A stretch of 64,000 nt of DNA, from positions 1-64,000 of the forward strand of contig JAMPYF010000007.1 of NCBI GenBank assembly GCA_023700805.1. Reading direction: 5' to 3'. Numbering within the stretch: the stretch's first letter is position 1; each line of letters begins with the position of its first letter. Below the pieces are notes generated by a model, which did not search any database, was not told where the DNA came from, and worked only from the letters and a program-made list of their open reading frames with translations. Positions 3,897 to 57,614 of the stretch are shown here, one piece after another. Source of the stretch: Sulfuritalea sp. GTDB lineage: Bacteria; Pseudomonadota; Gammaproteobacteria; Burkholderiales; Rhodocyclaceae. A program made the translations under genes and the position numbers.

Positions 3897-3920
3897 AGAG
3901 TTGGCGCTGGCGCGACGGCG
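3897..3920 (-). repeat. Dispersed 24-bp word, copy 1
   Basis: Read on the minus strand it is CGCCGT, CG, CG, then CCAGCGCCAACT and CT. It is intergenic, between DUF883 and the ferritin-like gene. It is one of ten copies in this window of the word CGCCGT-NN-YG-YCAGCGCCAACT-YY. Confidence 0.75.
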
Positions 3921-3969
3921 GGCGCAAGGCGATCGCGCCAGCGCAAAGCCGTGCGGATGCCGAGTTCGA

Positions 3970-4257
3970 TCACGGATGGGCGATGGAGGCGCCGGTGAAC
4001 AAGTAGCTCTTGAGCTGGCTGGAAAAGCTGCGGTCCTTGCGCTGTATCCACTCCAGCAGCATTGCCGCGTGTTCCTTCTCCTCGTCCCGATTGTGGATCA
4101 GGATGGCCTTGAGCGCCGGGTCCTTGCAGGCGTCGGCGCGCTGGTTGTACCAGTCCGTGGCTTCCAGTTCTTCCATCAGTGAAACTATGGCCCGGTGCAT
4201 GTCGCGCGTTTCAGCGGACAGCTCCTCGACGGGTTCGTGATAACCGACACTCGACAT
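3970..4257 (-). CDS. Encapsulated-ferritin-like protein (EncFtn family)
   Basis: The 95-residue protein closely matches the EncFtn ferroxidase pattern: MEELEATDWYNQR (Glu29, Glu32, Trp36, Tyr37) and HNRDEEKEHA (Glu60, His63). In Rhodospirillum rubrum EncFtn the equivalent Glu, Trp/Tyr and Glu/His residues bind iron between subunits of an annular decamer housed in an encapsulin shell. AGGAG lies six bases before the ATG. Two oddities: no encapsulin shell gene is adjacent, and the protein stops at YLFTGASIAHP without the C-terminal extension that carries the targeting peptide in known EncFtns. It may act without a shell or with one encoded elsewhere. Confidence 0.85.
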   Translation of the reverse strand: MSSVGYHEPVEELSAETRDMHRAIVSLMEELEATDWYNQRADACKDPALKAILIHNRDEEKEHAAMLLEWIQRKDRSFSSQLKSYLFTGASIAHP

Positions 4258-4543
4258 TCGATGCTCCTTTTGGGTTGCAGGGGCGGGCAGAGGCCGCCGC
4301 ACGCTGCGATGACCATGCAGGATGGACACGAAACGATTGCAATTCCGTTCGCTGGCGCACCCTTTGTCCTGCGCTATGTACGCCACCGCACTGACGCCAT
4401 CTGTGGTCTCGACTATTCTGGCCTTGAGGCTTCGAAAGCGTGTGCGGTTTGCATCCCAGGGGCTCGGTTCTTTGTGCGGAAGATGGCGAAATGCTCGAAT
4501 CCGGATCGGGAATTCTGTTCAACTCAAATTTGGAGAATCAATC

Positions 4544-4858
4544 ATGAAACAAGCTAGAAGTTATATCTCGGCGCTTTTCCTGGCCGTCACGCTGGTCTCG
4601 GTTGTCGGCTGCGCGTCCACCACCAAGCAGGAAGGCACCGGCGAGTACATCGACGACGCCGTGATCACCACCAAGGTAAAGACGGCAATTTTCAACGAGC
4701 CGACCCTGAAGTCCGCTGAAATCAATGTCGAGACCTTCAAGAACGTGGTTCAGCTGAGCGGATTCGTCAGTTCGCAGACGGCGATCAACAAGGCCGTCGA
4801 CCTGGCGCGCGGTGTTGCCGGTGTCCGCTCCGTCAAAAATGACATGCGGGTCAAGTAA
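4544..4858 (+). CDS. BON-domain lipoprotein
   Basis: A 104-residue protein with a lipoprotein signal peptide (lipobox VVGC, Cys23) followed almost directly by one BON domain (GEYIDDAVITTKVKTAIF through VRSVKNDMRVK). It is paralogous to the protein at 1852-2205 but is lipid anchored. GGAG lies about eight bases before the ATG. The 286-base divergent gap to the ferritin-like gene holds no other gene I can support. It should sit at the membrane-periplasm interface in an envelope-stress role. Confidence 0.88.
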   Translation: MKQARSYISALFLAVTLVSVVGCASTTKQEGTGEYIDDAVITTKVKTAIFNEPTLKSAEINVETFKNVVQLSGFVSSQTAINKAVDLARGVAGVRSVKNDMRVK

Positions 4859-4960
4859 GCCAACCTGAAGCCGAAGCGGGAGCAGGTAGCCGCGGGCTTC
4901 GCCCGCGCTTGCCTGTTCGCGCTGCGCCAGCCACCGCAAGCGTCCCGGGCGAGACCAGCC

Positions 4961-5905
4961 ATGGCCAGCGCAATTGTCGATCTGATCGTCCACGTCCCGA
5001 TTCACTGGGCGCGGCGGCTGCGTATCGTCCTGGTCGCCTCGCTGGTCTCGTGGATCGACCATCGTGCCGCCAGCAAAGGTGCGGCGCTGGCCTTCTATAC
5101 CCTGTTTTCGATGACGCCCATCCTGGTGCTGGCGATTGCGGTCGCCGGCTATTTTTTCGGCGCCGAGGCGGCCCAGGGCGAGATCGTCGCCCAACTCGAA
5201 GGTCTGGTGGGGCCGAATGGCGCAAAGGCGATGCAGGCCTTGCTGGCCGGTGCGCAGAGCCCCTCTTCGGGCCTGATGGCCACCCTGATCGCCAGCGTGC
5301 TCCTGCTGCTGGGTGCGACCAGTGTTTTTGCCGAGCTGAAGGGCAGCCTCGATGAACTGTGGGGCATAGGCCGGCCCGGCCGCTCGGGCTTCGGCGTACT
5401 GCTCCGAACGCGGCTCCTGTCGTTCGGCCTGGTACTGGTGCTGGCCTTTCTGCTGCTCGTATCGCTGGTCGTCAGCGCCGGATTGGCGATGGCGGAGCGC
5501 TACGCGCATGGAATTCTCGGAAGTTCTGCCCTGGTGCTCGAGACGATTTCGTCGCTGGTCTCCTTTGCCGTGATCGCCTGCATGTTCTCCATCATCTACA
5601 AGACCTTGCCCGACGCGCCGCTGTCGTGGCGCGATGTCTGGATCGGCGCGGCCTTCACCGCCGGGCTGTTCAGCCTGGGCAAGTACGCGATCGGCCTGTA
5701 TCTGGGCAACAGCGGCGTGGCATCGAGCTTTGGCGCGGCCGGATCGCTGATTGCCCTGCTGTTGTGGGTCTACTACTCGGCACAGATTTTCTTCCTCGGC
5801 GCGGAGTTCACGCGGCACTACGCGCTGTGGTTCGGCAGCCTGCAGCAGGAGAGGCTGCGCATGGAGGAGATCAGCGCCCTTGCCGTGCGGCCCGAGGTCG
5901 ACTGA
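4961..5905 (+). CDS. YihY/BrkB family inner-membrane protein
   Basis: The 314-residue protein has about six hydrophobic segments and the family's landmarks: ALAFYTLFSMTPIL near residue 45, GAAFTAGLFSLGKYAIGLYL in the second half and LLLWVYYSAQIFFLGAEF before the C-terminus. The family was once called ribonuclease BN or serum-resistance factor BrkB; both names are unreliable and the transport substrate is unknown. Its TGA overlaps the ATG of the next gene by one base, so the two are probably translationally coupled. Confidence 0.9.
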   Translation: MASAIVDLIVHVPIHWARRLRIVLVASLVSWIDHRAASKGAALAFYTLFSMTPILVLAIAVAGYFFGAEAAQGEIVAQLEGLVGPNGAKAMQALLAGAQSPSSGLMATLIASVLLLLGATSVFAELKGSLDELWGIGRPGRSGFGVLLRTRLLSFGLVLVLAFLLLVSLVVSAGLAMAERYAHGILGSSALVLETISSLVSFAVIACMFSIIYKTLPDAPLSWRDVWIGAAFTAGLFSLGKYAIGLYLGNSGVASSFGAAGSLIALLLWVYYSAQIFFLGAEFTRHYALWFGSLQQERLRMEEISALAVRPEVD

Positions 5906-7122: not shown

Positions 7123-7191
7123 GCCGCCAGGGCTGGAGCCGATCGATGCAATGGGCATCGACGGAATGACTAAGCGAAAAGGCTGGCTGAA

Positions 7192-10100
7192 TTGAATATC
7201 GACACCGGGCTGGGCGGATCTTGGCGACAGTGGGCCACGCGCCTGCGGGCGAATCTGTGGCCGCAAGCTGCGTCCGACGAGGAGTCTCCGTTGCGCGCCC
7301 GCCTGTTCAGCGCCGATCAGATGGAACAGCATGGCAAGGTGCTCGCCGGCTCGCACCGGTTGGCTGCCGGCCGCGCACCGGACCAGCTCCTGGCGCGGCT
7401 GGCGGCCAACGAAAGCGTGCTGGTCGGCGTCAGCCAGCTGCTGACGGCGGCGGTGACGAAACGGCACCGGATCACGCCGGCGGGGGAATGGCTGCTCGAC
7501 AACTTCTATCTGATCGAGGAACAGATCCGCACGGCCCGCAAGCATCTGCCCAAGGGTTACAGCCTGGAACTGCCGCGCCTGGCGCAGGGCCCATCGGCCG
7601 GCCGGCCGCGGGTCTATGACATCGCGCTGGAAATCGTCGCCCATGGCGACGGCCACGTCGACGCGGAATGCCTCGGCCGCTTCGTCACCGCCTACCAGAC
7701 CGTGACCACCCTCGATCTGGGCGAGCTGTGGGCGATTCCGATCATGCTGCGCCTGGCCGTGATAGAAAACCTGCGGCGCGTCAGCGTGCGTATCGCCGCC
7801 AGCCTGAAGGAGCGCAATCTGGCCGCGCGCTGGGCCGACGAGATGACGGATACCGCCGCAAACGACGCCAAGAACCTGATCCTGGTGATCGGCGACATGG
7901 CCCGTTCGAAGCCGCCGATGAATTGCTCGTTCGTCGCCGAACTGGCCCGCCTGCTGCAGGGAAAGGGGCCGGCGCTGGCCTTGCCCCTGACCTGGATCGA
8001 ACAGCATCTGGCGGAATCCGGCCTGACCATCGAACAGCTGGTGCAGACCGAGAACCAGCTGCAGGCGTCGGGCCAGGTCTCGATCAGCAACAGCATCGGC
8101 AGCCTGCGGGTGCTGGGCGCGATCGACTGGCGCGACTTCGTCGAGAGCATGAGCGTGGTCGAGCGGACGCTGCGCGAGGACCCGCCGGGCGTTTACGGCA
8201 GCATGGATTTCGCCACGCGCGACCACTACCGTCACGCCACCGAACGGATCGCGCGGAAGAGCGGGCTGGCGGAGGAGCTGGTGGCCCGCGGCGCGCTGGC
8301 ACTGGCCGCCGCCGCCGATCCGGCCGCCGGAGGCGATGCGCGGGCGGCGCACGTCGGCTTCTACCTGATCGACCGGGGCCTGCCGCAACTCGAAGGCGCC
8401 ATCGGCGCGATCCCCTCGCGCCTGGGCGCCTTGCGGCGCACGGCAGGCCGCTTTCCGCTGCTGCTTTACCTGGGCGGCATCACCCTGATCGCGCTGCCCA
8501 TCGCCTGGGCGCTCGTGGCGCAGATGCTGCCTGCCGTGCAGCGCATCGCGCAGTTTGCCGCGCTGCCGGCCACGCTGTCGCTCTGCGTGACGCTGCCGCT
8601 GACTGTGCTCGCCCTGCTGGCCGCGAGCCAGCTGGCGCTGGCGCTGGCGAACTGGCTTGCCACTCTCGTGGTGCAGCCGAAGCCGCTGCCGCGCATGGAT
8701 TTTTCCGGAGGCATTCCGGCAGCATCGCGCACCCTGGTGGTGGTGCCGACCATGCTCACCAGCAAGTCGAACATCGAGGATCTGATCGAGGCGCTGGAGG
8801 TCAGATTCCTCGCGAATCGCGACGAGCGCCTCCACTTCGGCCTGTTGACGGATTTTGCCGACGCCCGCCAGGAAACCCTGCCTGAAGATGAGGCCCTGCT
8901 GCAACAGGCGCGGGCCGGCATCCTCGAACTCAACGAGAAATATGTCGGTGCCGGCCTGCGGACTCGGGACGACATTTTCCATCTCTTCCATCGCCGGCGC
9001 TGCTGGAATCCCGTCGAGAGGCTCTGGATGGGCTATGAGCGCAAGCGCGGCAAGCTGGCGGCCCTCAATGCGCTGCTGCGCGGCGGCGCCGGCGGCCAGT
9101 GCGAGGGCGCCGCGGACGCGTTTTCGCTGGTCGTCGGCGACACGGCGATTCTGGCCGGGGTCAAGTATGTGATCACCCTGGACACGGATACGACCCTGCC
9201 GCGCGATGCGGCGCGGCAATTCGTCGGCGCGATGGCGCATCCGCTGAATCGCCCCGCCTACGACGAGGAACAGGGACGGGTCTCCAGCGGCTACGGCATC
9301 CTGCAACCCAGCGTCGCGGTCAGCCTGCCGGGCACCAACCGCTCGCGCTATGCGCGCCTGAACGGCGGCGAGCCCGGCATCGATCCCTACACGCGCACCG
9401 TTTCGAATGTCTACCAGGACGTGTTCGGCGAAGGGTCCTTCATCGGCAAGGGCATTTACGACGTCGACGCCTTCGAGCAGGCACTGGGCGGGCGTTTTCC
9501 CGAGAACCGCGTGCTCAGCCACGATCTGATCGAGGGCTGCTACGCGCGTGCCGGCCTGTTGAGCGACGTGCAGCTCTACGAGGACACGCCCGTGCGCTAC
9601 AGCGCGGAGGTAAGTCGCCGCCACCGCTGGATACGCGGCGATTGGCAACTCGCGGGCTGGCTGCGGCGGCATGTTCCCGACCATAGCTCGGACTTGAAAG
9701 TTGGCGTTGGCGACACGGCGAGAAAGAACCCGCTGTCGCTGCTGTCGCAGTGGAAGCTGTTCGACAACCTGCGGCGCAGCCTGGTCCCCGCCGTGCTGAC
9801 CGTGCTGTTGCTGCTGGGCTGGATGCTGCTGCCGGCGGTCGGACTATGGACCTTGTCGGTGATCGGCATCCTGTTGATTCCCTCCGCCTGCGCCTCGATC
9901 GTGGAACTCTTGCGCAAGCCGGACGAGGTGCTGCTGCGCCAGCATCTGGCGGCTGTCGGCCGGTCGGCGGCACGGCGCCTGATGCAGTTCGCATTCGAGT
10001 TCGCCTGCCTGCCCTACGAGGCGTACTACAGCCTGGATGCCATCTTTCGCAGCGTCTGGCGCATGCTCGTCACGCAGCGGCGGCTGCTGGAATGGAATCC

Positions 10101-13100
10101 GTCGAGCGAGGCGGAGCGCGAGTCGGCCAGGGGCGATGGCCACAGTCTGGCCGGCGTGGTGCGGACGATGTGGGCGGCGCCGGCGCTGGCGCTGGCCACC
10201 GCAATCGAACTGGCGGCATGGGCGCCGGCGGCCTTGCCGGTGGCCGCGCCGATTCTGCTGCTCTGGTTCGCTTCCCCCGCCATCGCCTGGTGGCTGAGCC
10301 TGCCGCTGGCCCGCCGCCAAGCCAGCCTGAGCGTCGAGCAAACCCGCTTCCTGCGCGCGCTGTCGCGCCGCACCTGGGCCTTCTTCGACAACTTCGTCGG
10401 CGCCGAGGATCACTGGCTGCCGCCCGACAATTTCCAGGAATACCGGATTGCCGCGATTGCGCACCGCACCTCGCCGACCAACATCGGGCTGGCGCTGCTG
10501 GCCAATCTTGCCGCCTGCGACTTCGGCTACCTGGCGCCCGGACAACTACTGCTGCGCACCGCCAACAGCTTCGCCACCCTCGATCTGCTGGAACGACACC
10601 GCGGTCACTTCTTCAACTGGTACGACACCCAGACACTCCAGCCTCTGGCGCCGCGCTACATCTCGACGGTGGATAGCGGCAATCTTGCCGGCCATCTGCT
10701 GACCTTGCGCGCCGGCCTGCTGGCGCTGGCCGATGAACGGATATTGCCGGCGCGGCTGTTCGACGGCCTGCGCGACACGCTGGGAATCCTCGCGGATGCG
10801 GCGGACGGTCCGGGGGCCGGGCCGGTGGCGGTGTTTCAGAATGAGCTGGAGGCGGCCTCGCTGGCTCCGCCGCTGACGCTCGAAGCCGGGCACCGGCTGC
10901 TGGCGGCCTTGTCGAGCGCCGCCGTCGAACTGCGGCTGCAGATTGCCAAGGCATTCGCTGGCAGCGACGATCCGGTGCTGAAGGGCGAGGCCGACGAATG
11001 GGCGGCGGCGCTGGCGCGGCAGTGTCGCGAGGCGCTGGACGAGTTGAGCCTGCTTGCCCCCTGGCTCGCATCGGGTGGGTTGCCGACAGTGGCGAACCAG
11101 ACCGGCATTCCGACCCTGCGCGAACTGGCCGCGGCGGGCAGCGTCCCGGCGCGCGAGCGCATGGCGGCGCTCGACGCACTGGCGGCGCGGGCCTTCGAGT
11201 TCGCCCAGATGGAATATGACTTTCTGTTCGACCGGGCGCGGCAGTTGCTGACCATCGGCTACAACCTCGATGAGCGGCGGGTGGATGCCAGCTACTACGA
11301 CCTGCTGGCGTCCGAAGCGCGCCTGTGCTGCTTCGTCGGCATTGCCCAGGGGCAACTGCCGGTCGATAGCTGGTTCGCGCTGGGCCGCCTGCTGACCCGC
11401 GCCGGCGGCGAGCCGGTGCTGTTGTCGTGGAGCGGCTCGATGTTCGAGTACCTGATGCCCATGCTAGTGATGCCGACCTACGACAATACCCTGCTCGACC
11501 AGACCTGCAAGGCGGCCGTGGCCCGCCAGATCGAGTACGGACGCCAGCGCGGCGTGCCCTGGGGCATTTCGGAATCGGGCTACAACACCGTCGATGTGCA
11601 GCTCAACTATCAATACCGCGCCTTCGGCGTGCCGGGCCTGGGGCTCAAGCGCGGCCTGGCCGAGGATCTGGTGATTGCCCCCTATGCCTCGGTGCTGGCC
11701 CTGATGGTGGCCCCCGAGGAGGCCTGCCGCAACCTGCAGCGGCTCGCGGCCGAAGGATTCATGGGCAAGTTCGGCTTGCTCGAAGCCATCGACTACACCC
11801 CGGCACGGCAGCGGCGCCGGCAATCGAGCGCGACGGTGCGCTCCTTCATGGCGCACCACCAGGGCATGAGCCTGCTGGCGCTGGCCTATCTGCTGCTGGA
11901 CCGGCCGATGCAGCGGCGCTTCGAATCGGACCGGCTGTTCCAGGCCGTGATGCTGTTGCTGCAGGAACGGATTCCGAAGGCCACGGCGCTGTTCTCGCAC
12001 ATCGCGCAACTGGCCGATGCCAGCGCGTCGCCGATGGCCGCGGAGATGCCGATCCGGGTCTTCGACAGCGCCGACACGCCGATACCGGAAGTGCAACTGC
12101 TCTCCAACGGCCGCTATCATGTCATGGTGACCAATGCCGGCGGCGGCTACAGCCGCTGGAACGATCTGGCCGTGACGCGCTGGCGCGAGGACGGCACCTG
12201 CGACAACCGCGGCAGCTTCTGCTACATCCGCGACCGCGCCAGCGGCGAGTTCTGGTCGACCGCCCATCAGCCGACACTGAAGCGGGCGGATAGCTTCGAG
12301 GCGATCTTCTCCGAGGGCCGCGCCGAGTTTCGCCGGCGCGATGCCGTGGCCGACGGCGCTGGCGAGTTCGAGACCTATACCGAGATCGTGGTTTCGCCCG
12401 AGGACGACATCGAGCTGCGCCGGGTGCGCATCACCAATCGCTCGCGCCAGCGCCGGGTGATCGACGTCACGACTTATGCCGAAGTGGTGATCGCGCCGGC
12501 GGCGGCCGACGCCATGCATCCGGCCTTCAGCAATTTGTTCGTGCAGACCGAGATTATCGCCGAACGGCACGCCATCCTGTGCACGCGCCGGCCGCGCTCG
12601 GCCGGCGAAAAGGCGCCCTGGATGTTCCATCTGATGACGGTGCACGGGGCGGAGCCGGGCGAGGTGTCCTACGAGACCGATCGCCTGCGCTTCATCGGCC
12701 GCGGCCGCGACTGCGTCGCGCCGCTGGCCATGAGCCTGGGCCCGGCGCCGCTGTCGGGCGGCGCCGGTTCGGTGCTCGACCCGATCGTCGCCATCCGTCA
12801 TACGGTAACGCTCGATCCGGACCAGGTGGTGACGATCAACCGCGTGTCGGGCATCGGCGAGACGCGCGCCAGGGCGCTGGCGCTGGTCGACAAATACCAG
12901 GACCGGCATCTCGCCGACCGCGTCTTCGATCTGACCTGGACCCACAGCCAGGTGGTGCTGCGCCAGCTCAATGCCACCGAGGCCGATGCGCAACTGTACG
13001 CGCGCCTGGCCAGTTCGGTGATCCACGTCAACGCCGGGCTGCGCGCCGAGGCCGCGCTGCTGATCCGCAATCGCCGCGGCCAGTCCGGGCTTTGGGGCTA

Positions 13101-20376: not shown

Positions 20377-21023
20377 TACCGCGCTCTCCCTGCCGCCAGG
20401 GCCAGACTTCCGGGATGAACGCGGACGGCAATGCCCTGGCCCGCGCGCAACTGGGTGAAGCGAGCGATCGCCTGATAGGCATCGTCCGCGACCACCACCC
20501 CATTGGCCGCCGTCGGCCTGGGCCCGCCGGCAGCGACGAGTGTCGGCTTGTCGCGCACGATGTCGACCCCCAGCACCCACAAGCTGTCGCGCATCGGCGC
20601 CGTCCACACCGCGCTGCGCACCATGCCGCGTTGCTGGCCGCCTTCGGCACGGCCATCCAGGCTGGGCATGGTCCCGCTAAGAATGTGCACCGATTTCTGT
20701 CCGGCGAGATACAGCAGGCCGGCGACGAAATCGCGCGCGGTCGCATCCTGGCCGACCACCAGCGCGGTTTCGCTGCCGGCCAATCCTGCGGTGCCCAGCA
20801 GCCAGAGTATGTCGCGCTCGCTGGGCAGGCGCCGCTGCGGACCGAGGAACTCCTCCGCCGGCAGGCAACGCGCGCCGGGAAGGCTGGCGCGCCTGCAATC
20901 GACCAGCGGCCGACTGTCGATCACCGTCGCGCCAGCGGCAACTCTTGACGTGTACGCAAAGTCGCCCGCCGCCCACGCGGGCGCGGCGATCAAGGCCAGG
21001 GCGAACAATGCGCCGCGCATCAT
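20376..21023 (-). CDS. Secreted rhodanese-like protein
   Basis: The 215-residue protein has a signal peptide (..LIAAPAWAAG) and a rhodanese-like fold: VIDSRPLVDCRRASLPGARCLP at the N-terminus and TALVVGQDATARDFVAGLLYLAG where the catalytic loop would be. Gln occupies the position of the active Cys (VVGQDAT), so sulfur transfer by the usual mechanism is unlikely; other Cys near residues 43 and 53 could substitute. It overlaps both neighbours by one codon position, so it is part of the same operon. Confidence 0.75.
   Translation of the reverse strand: MMRGALFALALIAAPAWAAGDFAYTSRVAAGATVIDSRPLVDCRRASLPGARCLPAEEFLGPQRRLPSERDILWLLGTAGLAGSETALVVGQDATARDFVAGLLYLAGQKSVHILSGTMPSLDGRAEGGQQRGMVRSAVWTAPMRDSLWVLGVDIVRDKPTLVAAGGPRPTAANGVVVADDAYQAIARFTQLRAGQGIAVRVHPGSLALAAGRAR
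20922..20945 (+). repeat. Dispersed 24-bp word, copy 3
   Basis: CACCGT, CG, CG, then CCAGCGGCAACT and CT; two mismatches to the consensus. It lies inside the secreted rhodanese-like gene, in antisense orientation to it. Confidence 0.6.
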
Positions 21024-31167: not shown

Positions 31168-33558
31168 ATGCAATTCTCCGAATCCTGGCTGCGCAGCCTT
31201 TGCAATCCCTCGTTGTCGAGCGAGGAACTCTGCCATGTACTGACCATGGCCGGCCTCGAAGTCGAGGAACGCCGTCCCGCCAGCGCCAACTTTTCGAATG
31301 TCGTCGTGGCGCAGGTGCTGAGCGTCGACAAGCACCCTGACGCCGACAAGCTCAAGCTCTGCGCGGTCGATGTCGGCGAAGCCGCGCCGCTGCAGATCGT
31401 CTGCGGCGCGCCGAATGTCGCCGCCGGCATGAAGGTGCCGTGCGCACGCGTCGGCGCCAGGTTGCCGGGCATCGAAATCAAGCGCGCCAAGGTGCGCGGC
31501 ATAGAGAGCTTCGGCATGCTCTGCTCGGCGCGCGAACTCGGTCTTTCCGACGACCATGGCGGCCTGCTGCCGCTGGCCGCCGATGCGCGGGTGGGCGAGG
31601 ACATCCGCCGCCACCTGGATCTCGACGATCACCTGATCACGCTCAAGCTGACGCCGAACCGCGCCGACTGCCTGTCGCTGCTCGGCATCGCGCGCGAACT
31701 CTCGGCGCTGACCGGCGCACCGCTGCTGGCGCCCGAAGTCCAGCCGGTCGCGGCGGTCGTCGCCGACACGCGAGCGGTGGTGCTCGATGCCCCCGCTTCG
31801 TGCCCGCGCTACTGCGGCCGCATCGTGCGCGGCGTCGATGCCCGCGCCGCGACGCCGGAATGGATGAAGCGGCGCATCGAACGCAGCGGCATCCGCGCCA
31901 TCTCCTTCCTGGTCGATGTCACCAACTACGTGATGCTCGAACTCGGTCAGCCGCTGCATGCCTTCGACGATGCCGAACTCGCGGGCGCGATCCATGTGCG
32001 CCTGCCCAATCCCGGCGAGCAACTGCTGCTGCTGAACGAACAGACGGTGACGCCGTCGGCCGACACCGCACTGATCGCCGACGATGAAAAGCCGCTGGCG
32101 ATGGCCGGCGTCATGGGCGGCGAGCACTCGGGCATCGGCGACTCCACCCGCGACCTGTTCCTCGAGAGCGCCTTCTTTCCGCCTGCCGCGATCGCCGGCA
32201 AGGCCCGCGCGCTGGGCTTCAGCTCGGACGCCTCGCACCGCTACGAGCGCGGCGTCGATTTCGAACTGCAGCGCAGGGCCATCGAACGCGCGACGCAACT
32301 GATCGTCGAAACCTGCGGCGGACAGCCCGGTCCGGTGGTCGAGGCGGTGTCGGCCGCACACCTGCCCACACGCAAACCCGTGCGCCTGCGCACGGCGCGC
32401 GCGGCGAAGGTGATCGGCATTCGACTCGGTGCCGAGCGCATCGAAAGCATACTCAAGGGCCTCGGCCTCGGCGTCGAGCGGCAGGGCGAGGATTTCCTCG
32501 TCACGCCGCCGTCCTTCCGTTTCGACATCGAAATCGAGGAAGACCTGATCGAGGAGATCGCGCGCATCCACGGTTACGACAACATCCCGTCCCCGCCGCC
32601 GGTGGCGCAGATGGCCATGATGCCGGCCACCGAGCACAGCCGCACGGCGATGAGCCTGCGCCGTCTGGTGGCCGCACGCGATTATCACGAGGTGGTCACT
32701 TACAGCTTCGTCGAAGCCGCCTGGGAAGCCGACTTCTCGGCGGCCCAGGCCGCGGGTGCGGCGCCCATCGTGCTGGCCAATCCAATCGCCAGCCAGATGG
32801 GTGTGATGCGCTCGACGCTGATCGGCGGCCTGGTCGGAGCCCTGGTCGCCAACCGCAAGCGGCAGACGGAACGGGTGCGTATTTTCGAACTGGGGCGCTG
32901 TTTCATGCGCGACGCCGGTGCCGGTCCGGTCGCAGGATTCGATCAGCCGCTGCGCCTGGGCGGCCTGGCCGCCGGCCCGGCGCTGCCGGAGCAATGGGGG
33001 GCGCCCGTCAGCCGGGTCGATTTCTACGACGTCAAGGCCGACGTCGAAGCCCTCTTCGCGCCGCGTCGCCTCGAATTCGCCAAGACCGGGCATCCGGCGT
33101 TGCATCCGGGCCGCTGTGCCACGGTCAGTCTCGACGGCCGGCCGGTGGGCTTCCTTGGCGAACTGCATCCGCGCTGGGTGCAGAAGTACGAACTGGGCAC
33201 CGCCCCGGTGGTTTTCGAACTCGAACTGGCCGCCCTGCTGGCCACACCCTTCTCGCGCTATGAGGAAGTTTCCCGTTTCCCCGCGGTGATCCGGGATCTG
33301 GCCCTGGTGGTGCCGCAAAGCCAGGCCCTGGCGCCCCTGCTGACTGCCCTGCGCGGCGCTGCGCCGGCCATCGTGCGCGATGTGGCCTTGTTCGACGTAT
33401 ATCAGGGCAAGGGCTTGGCCGAAAACGAAAAGAGCCTTGCCTTTCGCATAGTTATGCAAGATACTCAACGTACTCTCGAGGATGCGGAAGTGGAGGCGGT
33501 AATCGCCGATCTGCTGGCAGTCGCCAGCCGGGATTTTCATGCGTCCTTGCGCGGATAA
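31168..33558 (+). CDS. pheT: Phenylalanyl-tRNA synthetase beta subunit
   Basis: The product has 796 residues in the usual order: N-terminal tRNA-binding (EMAP-like) domain around 40-150, B3/B4 editing domain around 210-390 (including [10 protein letters not shown]), B5 domain, inactive class II-like core, and a C-terminal FDX-ACB domain ([31 protein letters not shown]). The B3/B4 site hydrolyses Tyr-tRNA-Phe. It pairs with PheS. Confidence 0.97.
31270..31293 (+). repeat. Dispersed 24-bp word, copy 4
   Basis: CGCCGT, CC, CG, then CCAGCGCCAACT and TT; a perfect consensus match. It lies inside pheT, encoding part of [10 protein letters not shown], a stretch not known to be invariant in PheT. 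Confidence 0.75.
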
Positions 33559-35346: not shown

Positions 35347-35370
35347 CGCCGTCCTGCCAGCGCCAACTCC
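35347..35370 (+). repeat. Dispersed 24-bp word, copy 5
   Basis: CGCCGT, CC, TG, then CCAGCGCCAACT and CC. It is intergenic, after the DUF3820 gene. Confidence 0.75.
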
Positions 35371-35735: not shown

Positions 35736-36872
35736 TCAGCCTGCCTGCTTGAAGGGCAGGTGGTTCGCGGTTTCCGCTTCGTAGTCCTGCATCGCCGAGT
35801 CTTCGCGGACGATGAAGTCGGCCACTGCGCGGCGCATGCCGGGATGGGCGATCCAGAACGCCGACCAGGTGGCGACCGGTTCGAAGCCGCGGGCGAGTTT
35901 GTGCTCGCCCTGCGCGCCGGGCTCGAAGCCTTGCAGGCCGTGGCGGATGCAGTAGTCGATGCCCTGGTAATAGCACAGCTCGAAATGCAGGCCGGGCAAT
36001 TCGATTTCGCTGCCCCAATGGCGGCCATACAGCGTGTGGGCGTCACGGTAGCAGATGGCCGAAGCGACCGGGGTCTGCCCGCGAAAGGCGATGAAGACGA
36101 CCAGGCGCCTGGCGAGCAGGGCGCCGGCCTCGACGAAGAATTCCAGCGGGAAGGCCGGATGGTTGCCGTAGCGGGCAAAGGTGTCGCGATACTGGCGGTG
36201 GATCGCCTGCCAGAGTCCGGCATCGATTTCGTCGCCATGCCGGGCTTCCAGGCGCAGGCCTGATTCGGCGACGGCGCGGCGTTCGCGCTTGAGTTTCTTG
36301 CGCTTGTCGGCGGTGAAGCCGGCGAGGAAGTCGTCGAAATCGCGGTAGCCCCGATTGAACCAGTGGAACTGCACGCCGCGCCGCATCAGGAGGCCGGCCG
36401 CGGCCAGCCGGACGCGATCCTCCTCTTCGACGAACAGGCATTGCCAGGAGGACGCGCCGAGCTGGCGCGTGACGTCCAGCGCCGCCTCGATCAGCGCCGG
36501 CGCCACGATGTCCCGTGCCAGGTCGCGCCGCACCAGCAGGCGCGGGCCCGGTGATGGCGTGTAGGGCATGCCGCTGACCAGCTTCGGGTAGTAGTCGAGT
36601 CCGGCGCGTTGCCAGGCCGCCGCCCAGTTCCAGTCGCGTGAAAAGTCGCCGAAGGAATGCGTGCGCAGGTAGAGCGGCAAGAGACCCGCCAGCCGCTTGT
36701 CCTCGTACAGCGCCAGGTGCCGGGCCTGCCAGCCCATCGCCGCGGCGCCAGCGCCAACTTTCTCGGCCGTGCCGAGGAAGGCGCGGCTGACGAACGGGTC
36801 GTCGCCGTGGTCGAGCAGGGCCCAGTCCTCATCCGGGATGGCGGTGGCGGCGTCATGGAGCACGATTTGCAT
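35736..36872 (-). CDS. FemAB-like/GNAT-type N-acyltransferase (PF04339-like)
   Basis: The 378-residue protein has two GNAT-like halves. The first contains PFVSRAFLGTAEK and the second GFTADKRKKLKRERR, YGNHPAFPLEFF and ELCYYQGIDYCIRHGLQGFEPGAQGEHKLARGF, split here by position. These fit the peptidogalycan-biosynthesis/FemAB-related family. The substrate is unknown; relatives transfer acyl or aminoacyl groups. The ATG at 36870-36872 is preferred over a TTG nine bases upstream. Confidence 0.85.
   Translation of the reverse strand: MQIVLHDAATAIPDEDWALLDHGDDPFVSRAFLGTAEKVGAGAAAMGWQARHLALYEDKRLAGLLPLYLRTHSFGDFSRDWNWAAAWQRAGLDYYPKLVSGMPYTPSPGPRLLVRRDLARDIVAPALIEAALDVTRQLGASSWQCLFVEEEDRVRLAAAGLLMRRGVQFHWFNRGYRDFDDFLAGFTADKRKKLKRERRAVAESGLRLEARHGDEIDAGLWQAIHRQYRDTFARYGNHPAFPLEFFVEAGALLARRLVVFIAFRGQTPVASAICYRDAHTLYGRHWGSEIELPGLHFELCYYQGIDYCIRHGLQGFEPGAQGEHKLARGFEPVATWSAFWIAHPGMRRAVADFIVREDSAMQDYEAETANHLPFKQAG
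36738..36761 (+). repeat. Dispersed 24-bp word, copy 6
   Basis: CGCCGC, GG, CG, then CCAGCGCCAACT and TT; one mismatch in the first block. It lies inside the acyltransferase gene, antisense to it (encoding VGAGAAAM). Confidence 0.7.
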
Positions 36873-37033
36873 GGTGGGCAATCCTACCCCGCGCCGCCCG
36901 CCAGTCGTGCATGCGACGCGCTTTTGCTCCCGGGACGCTTGGCGGCATAGTCCATTTCTGTTCCGGTCTTAGGGCGCCTGCCGCGATAAGCTAAAATATG
37001 CGCTGGATTTTCATCACCCCGGCTCTGACCTTC

Positions 37034-39356: not shown

Positions 39357-40289
39357 ATGAACGACGACGCCCTGTTTCCGGAACGCGACGCCGCTGACGC
39401 CGCCTCGGCCGCCGAGGCGGTCGCGGATGCGCACGAATCCGGTTTCATCGAAGACATCACCCAGTTCTACCTGCACGAGATCGGCGCGACGCCGCTGTTG
39501 ACCGCCGCCGAGGAAATCAAGCTGGCGCGTGCCGTGCGCGCCGGCGACTTCCTGGCGCGTCAGCACATGATCGAGGCCAATCTGCGGCTGGTGGTCAGCA
39601 TCGCGCGCCACTACCTGCACCGCGGCCTGCCGCTCGACGACTTGATCGAGGAAGGCAACCTGGGCCTGATCCATGCGCTGGAAAAGTTCGATCCGGAACG
39701 CGGCTTTCGTTTTTCGACCTACGCCACCTGGTGGATACGGCAAAACGTCGAACGCGCGATCATGAACCAGTCGCGCACCGTGCGCCTGCCGATCTACGTG
39801 ATCAAGGAACTCAATATCGTCCTGCGCGCCATGCGCAGGCTCGACCGCGAGCGTGGCGCCGACGAGGAGACGCCCGGCGCCATGCTGGAAGGCGTGGCCC
39901 GCCTGCTGGATCGTCCCGTCGCGGAAATCCGCCAGTTGCTGCTGCTCAACGAACGCTCCGCCTCGCTCGATTCGCCGCTCGACATCGATCCCGACTTGTC
40001 GATGGCCGATTCGATGGCCGACGAGGCCACCGAAGATCCGGTGGCCCATCTGGCCCAGCACGAGGCCGAGTTGCTGGTGGCGGACTGGGTGGCACAACTC
40101 ACCGAGCGCCAGCGCCTGGTCGTCGAGCGCCGCTACGGTCTGGGCGGCAACGACGCGACGACGCTCGAAGTCATCGCCGGCGACCTGGGCCTGACGCGCG
40201 AACGCGTGCGGCAGATCCAGATGGAAGCCCTGTCCAAGCTGAGGAAACGCATCGCCCGCGACGGGCTGACGCCCGATGCGCTACTTTGA
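39357..40289 (+). CDS. rpoS: RNA polymerase sigma factor RpoS
   Basis: This 310-residue sigma70-family protein has region 1.2 (DITQFYLHEIGATPLLTAAEE), region 2 with DLIEEGNLGLIHALEKFDPERGFRFSTYATWWIRQ split over 2.2-2.4, region 3, and region 4 ending LGLTRERVRQIQMEALSKLR. It is six bases after nlpD, the diagnostic position. It directs stationary-phase and general stress transcription; the BON, CsbD and DUF883 genes here are plausible targets. Its stop codon overlaps the end of the convergent mltB gene by nine bases. Confidence 0.96.
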   Translation: MNDDALFPERDAADAASAAEAVADAHESGFIEDITQFYLHEIGATPLLTAAEEIKLARAVRAGDFLARQHMIEANLRLVVSIARHYLHRGLPLDDLIEEGNLGLIHALEKFDPERGFRFSTYATWWIRQNVERAIMNQSRTVRLPIYVIKELNIVLRAMRRLDRERGADEETPGAMLEGVARLLDRPVAEIRQLLLLNERSASLDSPLDIDPDLSMADSMADEATEDPVAHLAQHEAELLVADWVAQLTERQRLVVERRYGLGGNDATTLEVIAGDLGLTRERVRQIQMEALSKLRKRIARDGLTPDALL

Positions 40290-41357
40290 CGCCGCCAGTG
40301 CGGTCGCCAGGTCCATGACGGCTGCCGCGTAGAAGCTGCTGCGGTTGTAGCGCGTGATCACATAGAAGTTGCGAAAGCCGAGGCGGTACTCGGTCGCCGC
40401 GTTGGGTGTGATCAGATCGATCAGGGCCGCCGGCCGGTCGGGAAACGCTGCGCCGGTTGCGTCCGTCGCCGTGTCGTCAGCGCCAACTCTTGTCAGTCGC
40501 ACATTGGCCGCCGCCATCTGCCGCGGTGCGCGTTGCGGCGCGATGCCCTCGTCGATCAGCGCCTGCACACCATCGCCGGTGATGCCGACGGCGACGGCGA
40601 TCGGCGTATCGCGCTCCCAGCCGTGGCCGGCCAGAAAATTGGCGACGCTGCCGATCGCGTCGGCCGGACTGGCATCCAGATCGATGCGGCCGTCATCGTC
40701 GAAATCGATGGCGAAGCGGCGCCGGGAGGACGGCAGGAACTGCGGCAAACCCAGGGCGCCGGCGTAGGAACCGACGTAGGACTGCGGGCTGCGGTTTTCC
40801 TCGCGCGCCAGCAGCAGCAGTTCTTCGAGCTCGCGGCGAAACAGTTCGGCCCGCGGCGGGTAGTCGAAGGCCAGGGTGGTCAGCGCGGCAAAGGTTTCGA
40901 AACGGCCCGGCTGTTTGCCGTAGAAAGTTTCGATGCCGATGATGGCGGCGATGATCTCGGCCGGCACGCCGAAGCGCGTTTCGGCGGCGGCCAGTTGCGC
41001 GCCGTGGAGATGCATGAAGCGCCGCCCCGCGGCGACGCGTTTCGGCTCGACAAAGCGCCCGCGGTAGGCCTGCCAGGAGCGCACGCCGGGATCCCTGGGC
41101 GGCATGATGGCCTTGATCACGGCGGCGATCGGCTGGGTCCGGCGGAACAGCCCGCCGAGCGCATCGGCATCGAAGCCGTGTTGCTGGCGCATGTGCTCGA
41201 CGAAGGCCTGCACGTCGGGGCGTTGCGCGTAACTGTGGTTGCGGCCGCTGCGCTTAACGTCGATGGAGCCGACGTCAGCCTCCACTGAAACTGCGTTTTC
41301 GGCGCGCGCCTGCGCGCTGAAGACGGCCAGCACGGTGAGGAGAAGCAGGCGCGTCAT
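40281..41357 (-). CDS. mltB: Membrane-bound lytic transglycosylase B type
   Basis: The 358-residue protein has a signal peptide (..AVFSAQARAEN) and an MltB-like catalytic domain with IIGIETFYGK (catalytic Glu) and SYAGALGLPQFLPSSRR, then DFDDDGRIDL. It cleaves peptidoglycan glycan strands to 1,6-anhydro ends. No clear lipobox Cys is present, so it may be soluble or periplasmic rather than lipid anchored. Its ATG overlaps the stop of the transglutaminase gene; its 3' end overlaps rpoS. Confidence 0.92.
   Translation of the reverse strand: MTRLLLLTVLAVFSAQARAENAVSVEADVGSIDVKRSGRNHSYAQRPDVQAFVEHMRQQHGFDADALGGLFRRTQPIAAVIKAIMPPRDPGVRSWQAYRGRFVEPKRVAAGRRFMHLHGAQLAAAETRFGVPAEIIAAIIGIETFYGKQPGRFETFAALTTLAFDYPPRAELFRRELEELLLLAREENRSPQSYVGSYAGALGLPQFLPSSRRRFAIDFDDDGRIDLDASPADAIGSVANFLAGHGWERDTPIAVAVGITGDGVQALIDEGIAPQRAPRQMAAANVRLTRVGADDTATDATGAAFPDRPAALIDLITPNAATEYRLGFRNFYVITRYNRSSFYAAAVMDLATALAASK
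40467..40490 (+). repeat. Dispersed 24-bp word, copy 7
   Basis: CGCCGT, GT, CG, then TCAGCGCCAACT and CT, followed by TGTCAGTCG. It lies inside mltB, antisense to it. Confidence 0.75.
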
Positions 41358-43300
41358 GGCTTGAATGCGGCGATGCGGCGCTTGAGCTGCTCCAGGTCGC
41401 TGCCCTGCGGCGCGGGGCCGTAGCGCAGGCGCGCATACAGGGCGGCGATCTCGCGAATGCCCACGGCATGGAGCGGCGCTTGGGCAGCCGCGCGTTCGGC
41501 AAAGGCCTGCGGTCCCTCCCAGGATTGCCAGGCAATGCCGCGCTTGGCCAGGCGGCGGGTGAAGCGCCGCCATGCCGCCAGCGCCGGATCGACGCGCAGG
41601 CGGTTGCGCAGTATCCAGGCGGTCAGCCCGAGCATGACCGCACCGCACAGCACCGACAGCACCGCGGTCATGCTGCGCCAGTCCGGCGCGCTCATGCCGA
41701 GGCTGGCCAGCAGATCGCGCTGGCGCTGAGGGTTGTAGCCGAGCACCCATTGATTCCAGCCGTTGGTCACCGCATCCAGCCGGTAGCGCAAGTCCTTGAG
41801 CCAGGCGGCGCGGGCCAGGAAGGGCAGGCCTTCGCCGGCGGGAATCGCCGCGGCCAGATTGCTGTTGATGCGGCTCGGCGCGGAAATCGCCGTCGGGTCG
41901 ATGCGCACCCAGCCGCGCCCGGCAATCCAGGCTTCGGCCCAGGCGTGGGCATCGTACTGGCGCACCTCCAGATAACCGTCCACGGGATTGACTTCGCCGC
42001 CCTGATAGCCGGCCACCACCCTGGCCGGGACGCCCGCGCTGCGCAGGCTGAAAACAAAGGCGGCGGCGAAGTGTTCGCAGAAACCGCGCTTGGTGTCGAA
42101 CAGAAACTCATCGACCATGTCGGCGCCCAGCAGCGGCGGATTCAGCGTGTAGATCAGGAGCTGCTGGTTGAACAGCTTTTCCGCCGCGGCCAGGATGGCC
42201 GCACCATCGTCGCCGTGCTGGGCGCGCCAGGCGGCACCGATGGCGCGGGTGCGGGGATTGCCGGCCTCCGGCAGGGCCAGCGCCGCGCGCAGAACGGCCG
42301 GAGATTCCTTCTCGCCGGCGATCGCCTCGGGCCAGGCGCTTTGCGTATAGCGCAGGCGATTGCGCACCGCCTGGCGGGCGATCGGCTGGTAGTCGACGGT
42401 CAAGGCGCTGTCCGCCGGCAAGGTGGCCGGCATTTCCAGCGCAAACAGCCAGAATTTTCCGTGCGGCTCCAGGGTCACTTCGTAGTCCACCGGGGTTCCC
42501 GATCCCGCGTAGGGAACTGTCGGATAGGCGCCCTGGGTTTGCGCAACCCGCCAGCTGCGTCCGTCGAACGCAGGCATCACCGGGCCACGCCAGTAGAGCT
42601 GCGATTGCGCCGGTATCGCGCCCTGGAAGCGCACCCGGAAGGCGATCGCATCCGACTGCGAGAGCCTGGCGATGGTGCCGGGCGCCATGGTGTCGGACAG
42701 ACCCGACACGGCCGAAAAGCGATCCTGCGGCAGGCCCCAGAGCGGACCCTGCACGCGCGGAAACAAGACGAACAGCAGCAGCATGAACGGCATCGCCTGG
42801 GCCAGCATCAATGTGGCACGCCGCAGCTGTTGTTGCGGTTGCGGGCGGTCGTCGCTGGCGGCCAGCAGGCTGGCGGTGGTGATCAGTACCGTGATCCCGG
42901 CAAGCAAGGCCGTGGCTATCGTCTGGGTGAACAGGAACTGGCCGAGGACCAGGAAGTAGCACAGCAGTGCAGTCGCCACCGCATCGCGCGCCGCACGCAG
43001 TTCGAGCAGTTTCAGCGCCAGAAACACCACCAGCAGGGAGATGCCCGGCGTGCGGCCCATGATGGTGCGGTATTGCAGGAACACGCCGACCGTACCCGCC
43101 ATCACCAGCAGGACCAGCAGCCAGCGCGGCGGCAAGTGCCACTGGCGCCAGGTCAGTGCGGCGCGCCAGGCGAACGCGCATGCCGCGGCAAGCGAAAGCC
43201 ACAGCGGAACCTGCTGCGCCAGCGGCGCGCTGGCGGCAAGGGCCGTGGCCAGCAGCCACCAGGCCTGGCGGCCGCTGACGGGACGGTTAGCCCTTCCCAT
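41354..43300 (-). CDS. TgpA-like transglutaminase membrane protein (DUF3488)
   Basis: The 648-residue protein has about six N-terminal helices (to about 175), a periplasmic transglutaminase-like core with Cys in KRGFCEHFAAAFVFSLR, His in QYDAHAWAEAWI and Asp in VRIDPTA, one more helix near 555, and a cytoplasmic C-terminal DUF4129-like tail. Pseudomonas TgpA is essential and envelope linked. The start overlaps the DUF58 gene by 14 bases, consistent with a MoxR-DUF58-TgpA-MltB operon. Confidence 0.9.
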   Translation of the reverse strand: MGRANRPVSGRQAWWLLATALAASAPLAQQVPLWLSLAAACAFAWRAALTWRQWHLPPRWLLVLLVMAGTVGVFLQYRTIMGRTPGISLLVVFLALKLLELRAARDAVATALLCYFLVLGQFLFTQTIATALLAGITVLITTASLLAASDDRPQPQQQLRRATLMLAQAMPFMLLLFVLFPRVQGPLWGLPQDRFSAVSGLSDTMAPGTIARLSQSDAIAFRVRFQGAIPAQSQLYWRGPVMPAFDGRSWRVAQTQGAYPTVPYAGSGTPVDYEVTLEPHGKFWLFALEMPATLPADSALTVDYQPIARQAVRNRLRYTQSAWPEAIAGEKESPAVLRAALALPEAGNPRTRAIGAAWRAQHGDDGAAILAAAEKLFNQQLLIYTLNPPLLGADMVDEFLFDTKRGFCEHFAAAFVFSLRSAGVPARVVAGYQGGEVNPVDGYLEVRQYDAHAWAEAWIAGRGWVRIDPTAISAPSRINSNLAAAIPAGEGLPFLARAAWLKDLRYRLDAVTNGWNQWVLGYNPQRQRDLLASLGMSAPDWRSMTAVLSVLCGAVMLGLTAWILRNRLRVDPALAAWRRFTRRLAKRGIAWQSWEGPQAFAERAAAQAPLHAVGIREIAALYARLRYGPAPQGSDLEQLKRRIAAFKP

Positions 43301-51599: not shown

Positions 51600-51623
51600 C
51601 GCCGTTGCGTCAGCGCCAACTTT
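51600..51623 (+). repeat. Dispersed 24-bp word, copy 8
   Basis: CGCCGT, TG, CG, then TCAGCGCCAACT and TT, followed by CCTCAGTCG. It is intergenic, directly after the rlmD terminator. Confidence 0.75.
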
Positions 51624-53586: not shown

Positions 53587-53610
53587 GGAGTTGGCGCTGA
53601 CGGTACGGCG
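53587..53610 (-). repeat. Dispersed 24-bp word, copy 9
   Basis: On the minus strand: CGCCGT, AC, CG, then TCAGCGCCAACT and CC. It is intergenic, downstream of the hypothetical gene and near tRNA-Ser. Confidence 0.75.
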
Positions 53611-55215: not shown

Positions 55216-55270
55216 TTCATGCTCCCGGAAAACGAAGTTTCAGTAAAGGCTAACGCCGGTTGTATCGGCG

Positions 55271-56905: not shown

Positions 56906-57057
56906 GGGCTGTACTCCTCTCTGTTGATCTGGTCAGGTGCCAAATTCGACGGCAACCATAGCATTGGAATACGCGAGAGACAATCGGGAATTGAATTGGG
57001 CGGAAATCGGTTCCGTCTAACGGAACAACAGCGGAATCCCGAAAACCTCGGGACGGA

Positions 57058-57510
57058 TCAGGCGAGGTCGTCGCGGTTGGCGTCGGCCCAGCAGTTGGGG
57101 GTCTCGTAGAGCCGGATGCGCTCCAGGTGCAGATGATTGCCGTAGCTGTCGCGATAGAGCGGATCGAGAATCGAGAAGGCGATGCGGGCGAGGTTTTCCG
57201 CCGTCGGGACGGCGTCGAGCACGACCGTCTTGTGTTCCGGCATGCCGGCGAGAAAGCTCGCCACGACCGTATCGCCGCGCCAGACGAGAAAGGCATGGTC
57301 CCAGCGATCGACTACATGCTGTTTGGCAATCGCCTTGACCTCGGAAAAATCCATCACCATGCCGTCGTCCGGACGTCCTGCGGCGTCAATGACGCCGCCG
57401 GCGAGCGTGATCTCCAGGGCGTAGCGATGGCCGTGCAGGTGACGGCACTGGCTTTGATGATTCGGGATACGGTGGCCCGCATCGAATTCGAGGCGGCGGG
57501 TTATACGCAT
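57058..57510 (-). CDS. queD: 6-Carboxytetrahydropterin synthase (QueD)
   Basis: A 150-residue PTPS-family enzyme. The zinc-binding His residues are in FDAGHRIPNHQSQCRHLHGHRY (His14-type, then HLHGH); Cys in QCRHLHGH is the catalytic Cys, and VMDFSEVKAIAK, DHAFLV and PTAENLARI follow. It makes 6-carboxytetrahydropterin for queuosine. Residue positions are approximate. An ATTATA at 57573-57578 on the complement reads TATAAT and could be its -10. Confidence 0.93.
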   Translation of the reverse strand: MRITRRLEFDAGHRIPNHQSQCRHLHGHRYALEITLAGGVIDAAGRPDDGMVMDFSEVKAIAKQHVVDRWDHAFLVWRGDTVVASFLAGMPEHKTVVLDAVPTAENLARIAFSILDPLYRDSYGNHLHLERIRLYETPNCWADANRDDLA

Positions 57511-57572
57511 GATCGGAGTGGCCGGGTTTGTGGCAAAGTGTTCGCAGCTGCGCTGCCGGTGGGCTGGCGCGC

Positions 57573-57578
57573 ATTATA
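57573..57578 (-). promoter_or_regulatory. -10 element for queD
   Basis: TATAAT on the minus strand, giving a leader of about 55 bases before the queD ATG. No convincing -35. Confidence 0.45.
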
Positions 57579-57590
57579 GCCGTGCGGCAG

Positions 57591-57614
57591 CGCCGTCCCG
57601 CCAGCGCCAACTCT
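57591..57614 (+). repeat. Dispersed 24-bp word, copy 10
   Basis: CGCCGT, CC, CG, then CCAGCGCCAACT and CT; a perfect consensus match. It is intergenic, between queD and the radical SAM gene. Confidence 0.75.

What the first reader, a model, noticed from the sequence alone, without database searches (positions are those of the whole stretch)
3897..57614. Ten copies of a strict 24-bp dispersed word in 54 kb
The word CGCCGT, NN, YG, YCAGCGCCAACT, YY occurs at 3897, 9697(-), 20922, 31270, 35347, 36738, 40467, 51600, 53587(-) and 57591; the copy at 3897 is also on the minus strand. The 12-base core YCAGCGCCAACT is exact in eight copies and has one mismatch in two. The two bases after CGCCGT vary freely and the flanks are unrelated, so this is not a copied longer element. 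Five copies are intergenic and five are inside ndvB, a rhodanese-like gene, pheT, the acyltransferase gene and mltB. Chance expectation for a 12-mer in 64 kb is near zero. Such spread, in both orientations and tolerated in coding sequence, resembles DNA-uptake words (as in Neisseria or Haemophilus), chi/KOPS-like signals or a binding site for an abundant protein. I know of no described motif with this sequence.
Basis: seen in the sequence. Interest (0 to 1): 0.75.

Follow-up and report, generated by a model that had tools for sequence, protein, structure and literature searches.

The report
Genome-wide uptake-like DNA word
Bacteria of the Sulfuritalea group carry hundreds of copies of one strict 24-letter DNA word that differs like a dialect between genera, and it looks like a "take up your own DNA" tag of a sort reported so far in only two other bacterial families.

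Summary
The window has ten copies of the word (0.02 expected). The host genome, a Sulfuritalea-like member of Rhodocyclaceae, has 694 copies against 1 for the backwards control. All 31 genomes searched in the genus have 47-749 copies.

In a 29-genome pheT tree, all word-bearing genomes lie in one clade of 21. Eight forms of the word (two in the own genus) share one 24-26 bp frame, at consensus level GNCGT-N13-ACT. The word arises by base substitution, not insertion: 1 of 1,174 collinear orthologous pairs looks like a deletion. In pheT all eight third codon positions of the word are identical in 15 species, while its amino acids vary more than the gene average. Orientation is balanced on both chromosome halves, which rejects Chi/KOPS.

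Best explanation: a DNA-uptake-type self-recognition word, read by the type IV pilus system. One complete genome inside the clade has no PilQ over cut-off, no ComP-family pilin and no words. Against it: canonical ComEA was not found in 11 word-rich genomes, no receptor was identified, and uptake is untested. A 2025 paper says only Neisseriaceae and Pasteurellaceae have such words.

The parts
3897..3920 (-). word copy, 0 mismatches, between convergent genes (rough gene call)
9697..9720 (-). word copy, 1 mismatch, antisense inside the ndvB-like ORF 7291-16002 (+)
20922..20945 (+). word copy, 2 mismatches, at a gene boundary by the rough gene call; host gene not identified
31270..31293 (+). word copy, 0 mismatches, in sense frame of pheT (codons 35-42, RRPASANF); same-length replacement of the outgroup sequence
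35347..35370 (+). word copy, 0 mismatches, intergenic
36738..36761 (+). word copy, 1 mismatch, antisense inside a FemAB-like gene (35736-36881, -); a word with up to 3 mismatches at the same place in 12 of 13 other loci aligned there
40467..40490 (+). word copy, 0 mismatches, antisense inside mltB (40281-41750, -)
51600..51623 (+). word copy, 0 mismatches, between convergent genes (rough gene call)
53587..53610 (-). word copy, 0 mismatches, intergenic
57591..57614 (+). word copy, 0 mismatches, intergenic (divergent, rough gene call)

Best explanation
The word is the genome tag of a self-DNA recognition system, functionally like the DNA uptake sequences (DUS) of Neisseriaceae and the uptake signal sequences (USS) of Pasteurellaceae. 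A surface receptor on or near the type IV pilus is proposed to bind the word on free DNA and favour uptake of DNA from the same dialect group. Homologous recombination then spreads and maintains the word by biased import (molecular drive). Shown here: a genome-wide, clade-bound, dialect-forming, substitution-derived, nucleotide-conserved, orientation-neutral word.
For: Copy number: 694 in 4.16 Mb, control 1; 31 of 31 genus genomes 47-749; 40 of 297 family genomes have 80 or more copies, from eight genera, and the other 257 have at most 44. Dialects: on one frame, genera differ at fixed places. For example G067 has 7 copies of its own form in 37 kb (part of it N) at up to 4 mismatches, and the nine other sets tested with it have 0. 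The consensus bases at positions 2, 4-6, 9, 11 and 20-22 are the same in all eight forms. All word- or dialect-bearing genomes of the pheT tree lie in one clade of 21 (support 99/99; 98/99 with the word's own columns left out) against eight word-free. Spread by substitution: of 1,174 collinear orthologous pairs, 855 keep the word, 116 lack it without any gap, 202 lack it with other gaps, 1 has at least 18 word bases deleted. Identity between species over all 1,174 pairs, gaps counted as mismatches: flanks 0.799, fixed word positions 0.856, the two free N positions 0.623; without the gapped pairs 0.812, 0.900 and 0.636. pheT: third-position identity 1.000 in the word (gene mean 0.679; 3 of 785 windows reach it, the word included), amino-acid identity 0.765 (gene 0.880), rank 1 of 785 windows for third over first/second positions. 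No replichore bias. Intergenic 27 of 70, 14.5% expected. Spacing somewhat more even than random (four tests, P 0.03-0.07). ComEC in 33 of 33 genomes, PilQ over cut-off in 28 of 29, ComP_DUS-family pilin in 28 of 30. G118, rated 100% complete and inside the clade, has 0 words, no PilQ over cut-off and no ComP-family pilin.
Against: No uptake experiment. Canonical ComEA, needed for transformation in the systems I know (recalled), was over the TIGR00426 cut-off in only 2 of 21 clade genomes (G117, G067); with PF12836 no short frame was over cut-off in G000, G002, G005, G018, G091, G061, G072, G177, G153, G165 and G098, though G017 has three. Only 3 of 8 word-free genomes have ComEA by TIGR00426, so it does not discriminate either. 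PilQ, ComEC and ComP-family pilins are also present in word-free genomes. Words are nearly absent or sparse in G293, G136 and G017 although PilQ is present. G020, G189 and G314 have words but no PilQ match (83, 91 and 60% complete), and word-rich G098 has no ComP-family hit. The G118 link is a single event. Density, about 1 per 6 kb, is lower than in the Neisseriaceae listed in PMC3630211 (943-5,918 copies per genome, section 6), and the word is about twice as long as DUS. The 66 copies behind sit at only 14 distinct orthologous places.
Confidence: 0.68

Rival explanations
1. Binding site of an abundant cytoplasmic chromosome-organising or regulatory protein whose specificity has drifted between genera.
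For: Bipartite frame with two conserved parts looks like a protein site. Enriched between genes (27 of 70) and conserved at nucleotide level.
Against: About 37 bits of information (summed, inflated by the mismatch filter) where about 13.5 would suffice for 694 sites. 43 of 70 copies are in predicted coding sequence. Divergent intergenic regions are not favoured (4 of 27 copies against 29% of intergenic bases; convergent 8 of 27 against 16%). No half-chromosome preference of forward copies in a complete chromosome. Whole-genome dialect replacement is hard for a needed protein with hundreds of sites (inference).
Confidence: 0.2
2. Small mobile or repeat element that inserts copies (MITE, REP or RPE type).
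For: Dispersed, both strands, 694 copies.
Against: No insertion footprint: 1 of 1,174 orthologous pairs lacks at least 18 word bases, 116 lack the word with no gap. pheT shows same-length replacement. Two free positions inside, no flank information.
Confidence: 0.02
3. Chi, KOPS or other replichore-polar signal, or a Ter/ori-zoned signal (matS, Noc or SlmA type).
For: Short, frequent, tolerated in genes.
Against: 331/363 and 150/135 strand counts. Forward copies split 75/75 between chromosome halves counted from dnaA, and the first 100 are spread evenly (KS P 0.16).
Confidence: 0.01
4. By-product of composition, codon usage or a repeated peptide.
For: 64% GC; coding copies show a frame preference (antisense frame 0: 19, sense frame 2: 12, sense frame 0: 8 of 43).
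Against: Backwards control 1 against 694. Relatives outside the word-rich set have at most 44. 27 of 70 copies are non-coding, and coding copies occur in several frames and strands. pheT keeps the word's synonymous bases while its amino acids change.
Confidence: 0.01
5. Site kept by methylation or repair, like HIP1 of cyanobacteria.
For: HIP1 is also a highly iterated word (start of the abstract of PMC4390886 in a search listing).
Against: The word is long, bipartite and not palindromic; no linked methyltransferase was sought.
Confidence: 0.05

Closest known systems
DNA uptake sequence (DUS) of Neisseriaceae and its dialects (PMC3630211: abstract and section 6 seen)
   Same: Many copies of a strict word, dialects that follow the phylogeny with a short shared inner core, family-bound. 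Most bearers tested here have type IV pilus genes and ComP_DUS-family pilins.
   Different: 24-26 bp and bipartite instead of up to about 13 continuous bases; about 1 per 6 kb. Shared core is GNCGT-N13-ACT rather than CTG. No close inverted pairs among 70 copies. Uptake untested, receptor unknown. The left half of the G072 dialect (TGCCGTCY) resembles the canonical DUS start as I recall it: a lead only.
Uptake signal sequence (USS) of Pasteurellaceae (PMC12616744: introduction read, other passages by find)
   Same: Dispersed self-DNA word with types per subclade; discontinuous motif reaching about 32 bp.
   Different: Different sequence (GCGG core, AT-rich tracts). Here both halves are GC-rich and specific, and only a short T-rich end is seen.
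HIP1 of cyanobacteria (search listing only)
   Same: Highly iterated dispersed word.
   Different: Palindromic octamer; this word is long and not palindromic.
Chi and KOPS (recalled)
   Same: Short, frequent, tolerated in genes.
   Different: Those are strand-polar; this word is not.

Membership tests
DNA uptake words (DUS/USS class) | Strong genome-wide over-representation of a strict word | tested here: met
   694 against control 1
DNA uptake words (DUS/USS class) | Both orientations, no replichore polarity | tested here: met
DNA uptake words (DUS/USS class) | Dialects that follow phylogeny with a shared core | tested here: met
DNA uptake words (DUS/USS class) | Spread by substitution and recombination, not insertion | tested here: met
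   substitution; recombination itself was not tested
DNA uptake words (DUS/USS class) | Type IV pilus and ComEC present in bearers | tested here: met
   PilQ over cut-off 28 of 29, the miss being word-free G118; ComEC 33 of 33. In the larger set 75 of 80 had a PilQ match (73 over cut-off), and the five misses include word-bearing but incomplete G020, G189 and G314
DNA uptake words (DUS/USS class) | ComEA present | tested here: inconclusive
   over cut-off in 2 of 21 clade genomes and 3 of 8 word-free ones; no short frame over cut-off in 11 word-rich genomes with a second model; a divergent or analogous protein is not excluded
DNA uptake words (DUS/USS class) | Word increases DNA uptake or transformation | not testable with these tools
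   needs an experiment
Neisseriaceae DUS | CTG core in a 10-13 bp continuous word | tested here: not met
   24-26 bp bipartite word, core GNCGT-N13-ACT
Neisseriaceae DUS | ComP receptor | tested here: inconclusive
   PF16732 pilins in 28 of 30 genomes, word-rich and word-free alike; none in word-rich G098 or word-free G118
Pasteurellaceae USS | GCGG core with AT-rich tracts | tested here: not met
Chi/KOPS | Strand polarity relative to ori and ter | tested here: not met
Insertion-type repeats (MITE/REP/RPE) | Clean insertion relative to orthologous empty sites | tested here: not met

The most novel reading that the evidence does not exclude
A third, independent family of self-DNA recognition words, with at least eight forms across about eleven genera of Rhodocyclaceae. 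It is built as two parts about a turn and a half of DNA apart, is longer than the continuous DUS words, and works in cells most of which lack a recognisable ComEA. It therefore implies a new receptor or a new uptake route, and a barrier to gene flow between dialect groups of environmental bacteria.
Probability: 0.5. Interest if true: 0.88.

Novelty: new variant of a known kind. Interest (0 to 1): 0.78.

Why it matters
Uptake words are known in only two families, according to a 2025 paper (PMC12616744, introduction). A third case with many dialects gives an independent test of how such words arise and drift, and of whether receptor and word coevolve. It would also mean that these environmental bacteria may exchange genes preferentially within dialect groups. 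The word-free genome without PilQ and the many dialects make receptor identification directly testable.

Tried and rejected
Rejected: insertion element, Chi/KOPS, composition or peptide repeat, terminator hairpin pairs (no two neighbours within 150 bp among 70 copies; the listing does show one close pair on contig C9, at 369 and 425, but both on the same strand).

Led nowhere: (1) A receptor. ComP_DUS pilins and the N-methyl pilins found in G000 and G002 (15 and 11) gave no candidate that separates word-rich from word-free genomes; phmmer ranks mix both kinds. (2) ComEC, PilQ and ComEA do not discriminate. (4) No dialect was recognised in 77 kb of G293, 87 kb of G017 or 24 kb of G109, nor in 100 kb each of word-free G071 and G034. 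(5) The first line-up of PilQ scores looked like a word-linked divergence, but word-rich G072 and G177 score high, so it is lineage, not word.

Caveats: gene positions come from a simple codon-usage caller of my own. The 66 copies are at 14 distinct places, the five commonest holding 56 of them. The 202 'other gaps' pairs include pheT, where the pairwise aligner put gaps into a plainly ungapped region; counting them lowers the word-over-flank gain from 0.900/0.812 to 0.856/0.799. I picked the 15 pheT genes because they bear the word; they are also all the loci at 86% identity or more to the window's pheT, and the five next (81-83%, L043-L047) lack it. The first tree held the word's own eight columns; without them the clade stays (98/99) but G153 with G118 drops from 96/89 to 88/87. 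G109 was left out of both trees (partial pheT). DnaA of G002 was recognised by its P-loop motif only. The information estimate is inflated by the filter of two mismatches.
Full report
Observation. In the host genome (G000, 4.16 Mb, 63 contigs) the word with up to 3 mismatches occurs 331 times forward and 363 times reverse; read backwards as a control it occurs 0 and 1 times. The closest named relative by pheT (96% identity) is a Sulfuritalea metagenome-assembled genome, so the window comes from a Sulfuritalea-like member of Rhodocyclaceae.

The word. From 70 copies with at most 2 mismatches in 454,808 bases of G000 (window plus stretches), the profile is CGCCGT, two free bases, CGCCAGCGCC, A, ACT, (C/T)T(T/C), with a weak A and T preference at the two bases before it. 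Beyond that the flanks hold next to no information. The mismatch spectrum is 40, 15, 15, 9, 10 copies at 0, 1, 2, 3, 4 mismatches; the backwards control has 0 at 0-2, 1 at 3 and 6 at 4. The two free positions and the sharp edges argue for a recognised site, not a copied element.

Who has it. All 31 genus genomes searched have it (47 to 749 copies), and 30 genomes of other genera in the same call have 0 to 4. In 297 family genomes (drawn evenly from a larger group; pattern with R at position 19), 40 have 80 or more copies: 13 of the own genus and 27 from seven other genera (g32, g43, g47, g62, g69, g70, g88). The other 257 have at most 44. In a pheT tree of 29 of these genomes, every word- or dialect-bearing genome falls into one clade of 21 (support 99/99; 98/99 with the word's own columns left out), apart from eight word-free ones. 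The clade also holds word-poor G118, G136 and G293. The root was placed at the midpoint for drawing.

Dialects. Counting over-represented 10-mers without reference to the word, then aligning their surroundings, showed forms on the same frame: CAACT in G000; CGACT in G002 (same genus); GCACCGACTTTT in G061; a leading T in G072; CCCCAGCGTCGACTTTT in G098; CGGCGTGTCACCAGCACCAACTGAC in G067; CGGCGTGCCGCCACGGCTGACTTTCG in G166; CGCCGTNYCGCAGNGGCTGACTTTC in G256. In own sequence at up to 4 mismatches the counts, each against 0 in the backwards control, are 15 (G098, 78 kb), 7 (G067, 37 kb), 12 (G166, 100 kb), 7 (G256, 85 kb), 22 (G061, 120 kb) and 22 (G072, 120 kb). G067's form is absent from the nine other sets tested and G166's occurs once elsewhere. 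The forms of G061, G072 and G098 overlap, and G256's form also matches 6 places in G166. Consensus positions 2, 4-6, 9, 11 and 20-22 are the same in all eight.

How it spreads and is kept. The pheT copy replaced eight codons in place: outgroups read NEPVAPEF or the like, bearers RRPASANF or RRPAGADF, with no length change. For 66 copies in 29 syntenic sequences (window 20,001-45,000 and 28 loci), at 14 distinct places, 1,174 orthologous pairs were collinear: 855 keep the word (up to 4 mismatches), 116 lack it without a gap, 202 lack it with other gaps, 1 shows at least 18 word bases missing. 152 pairs with one flank only and 11 non-collinear pairs were dropped. Over all 1,174 pairs, gaps counted as mismatches, identity is 0.799 in the flanks, 0.856 at fixed word positions and 0.623 at the two free ones; in the 971 pairs without the gapped ones it is 0.812, 0.900 and 0.636. 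In 15 pheT genes, which are all the loci at 86% identity or more plus the window, the third codon positions inside the word are all identical (gene mean 0.679; 3 of 785 eight-codon windows reach this, the word included) while the amino acids are less conserved than average (0.765 against 0.880; 110 of 785 windows are as low). For third over first and second positions the word ranks 1 of 785. Selection or drive therefore acts on the DNA letters.

Placement. With a rough gene caller, 27 of 70 copies are intergenic where 14.5% is expected (P 6e-7); convergent gaps hold 8 and divergent ones 4 of 27, against 16% and 29% of intergenic bases. Coding copies prefer antisense frame 0 (19), sense frame 2 (12) and sense frame 0 (8) of 43. 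No two neighbours among these 70 lie within 150 bp, so the terminator-pair use known from DUS and USS is not seen; one same-strand pair 56 bp apart is in the listing. Spacing is slightly more even than random (four tests, P 0.03 to 0.07). In a complete chromosome (G002, DnaA motif at base 577) the 150 exact forward copies split 75/75 between halves.

Mechanism. Strict word, hundreds of copies, no polarity, tolerance in genes, substitution origin, phylogeny-bound dialects with a short shared core: I know of one class of DNA word with all of these, uptake words. [quoted passage not shown] ComEC is in 33 of 33 genomes, and 28 of 29 have PilQ over its cut-off; both sets include word-free genomes. 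The exception, G118, is rated 100% complete, groups inside the word clade next to word-rich G153, and has no words, no PilQ over cut-off and no ComP-family pilin. That is one event, not a statistic. In 80 genomes, five lack a PilQ match at E 1e-62: G118, and G020, G189, G229 and G314, which are 60-91% complete; of these G020, G189 and G314 have words.

Against. ComEA is over the TIGR00426 cut-off in 2 of 21 clade genomes (G117, G067) and 3 of 8 word-free ones (G071, G034, G089). With PF12836 no short frame is over cut-off in 11 word-rich genomes; the strong hits there are frames of about 800 residues, which I take (recalled) for Tex, and G072, G165 and G018 have weak hits in frames of 227-324 residues. 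Sparse-word G017 has three short-frame hits over cut-off. Words are gone or sparse in G293, G136 and G017 despite PilQ. No receptor candidate separates bearers from non-bearers.

Literature. Searches for DNA uptake sequence with Rhodocyclaceae (0 papers), uptake signal sequence with Rhodocyclales (0), Sulfuritalea with related terms (none of the 20 listed of 2,101 holds Sulfuritalea), the word strings themselves (one unrelated paper), natural transformation with Rhodocyclaceae (two papers, listings only, not on this by title), and two broader searches (2 and 18 listings) showed no description of this word in the open library searched. Most subscription papers and all preprints are outside it.

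Noticed in passing
G118 (g89): A genome rated 100% complete inside the word clade that lacks PilQ over cut-off, the ComP-family pilin and the word, but keeps ComEC.
   Followed up: partly
G000, G002 and nine other word-rich genomes: No canonical short ComEA over cut-off with TIGR00426 or PF12836; present in word-free G071, G089 and G034 but not in five other word-free genomes.
   Followed up: partly
PilQ: PilQ of Sulfuritalea and near genera scores about 314-365 bits against the model, where the eight word-free genomes score 496-523: a strongly diverged secretin in that lineage.
   Followed up: no
G000 contig C37, 204000-231000 (L301, L302): Two separate minor-pilin clusters about 13 kb apart, each with a ComP_DUS-family pilin and a FimT-like one judged by eye.
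   Followed up: partly
G017, G026, G022 (same genus): Word number reduced to 47-239 with no replacement word recognised in 87 kb of G017: possible decay after loss of the system.
   Followed up: partly
G000 contig C9, 369 and 425: Two exact same-strand word copies only 56 bp apart, the closest pair seen in the listing.
   Followed up: no
IMG/VR contigs L181-L260 and others: Single exact word copies on viral contigs; some contigs carry two. May mark prophages of word-bearing hosts.
   Followed up: no
G034 C1:1-100000: A different over-represented word (TTGTGGGAGCGG) in a word-free relative, its 10-mers 7-9 times in 100 kb.
   Followed up: no
g43 dialect (G072): Left half TGCCGTCY resembles the start of the canonical Neisseria DUS as recalled; may be chance.
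   Followed up: no
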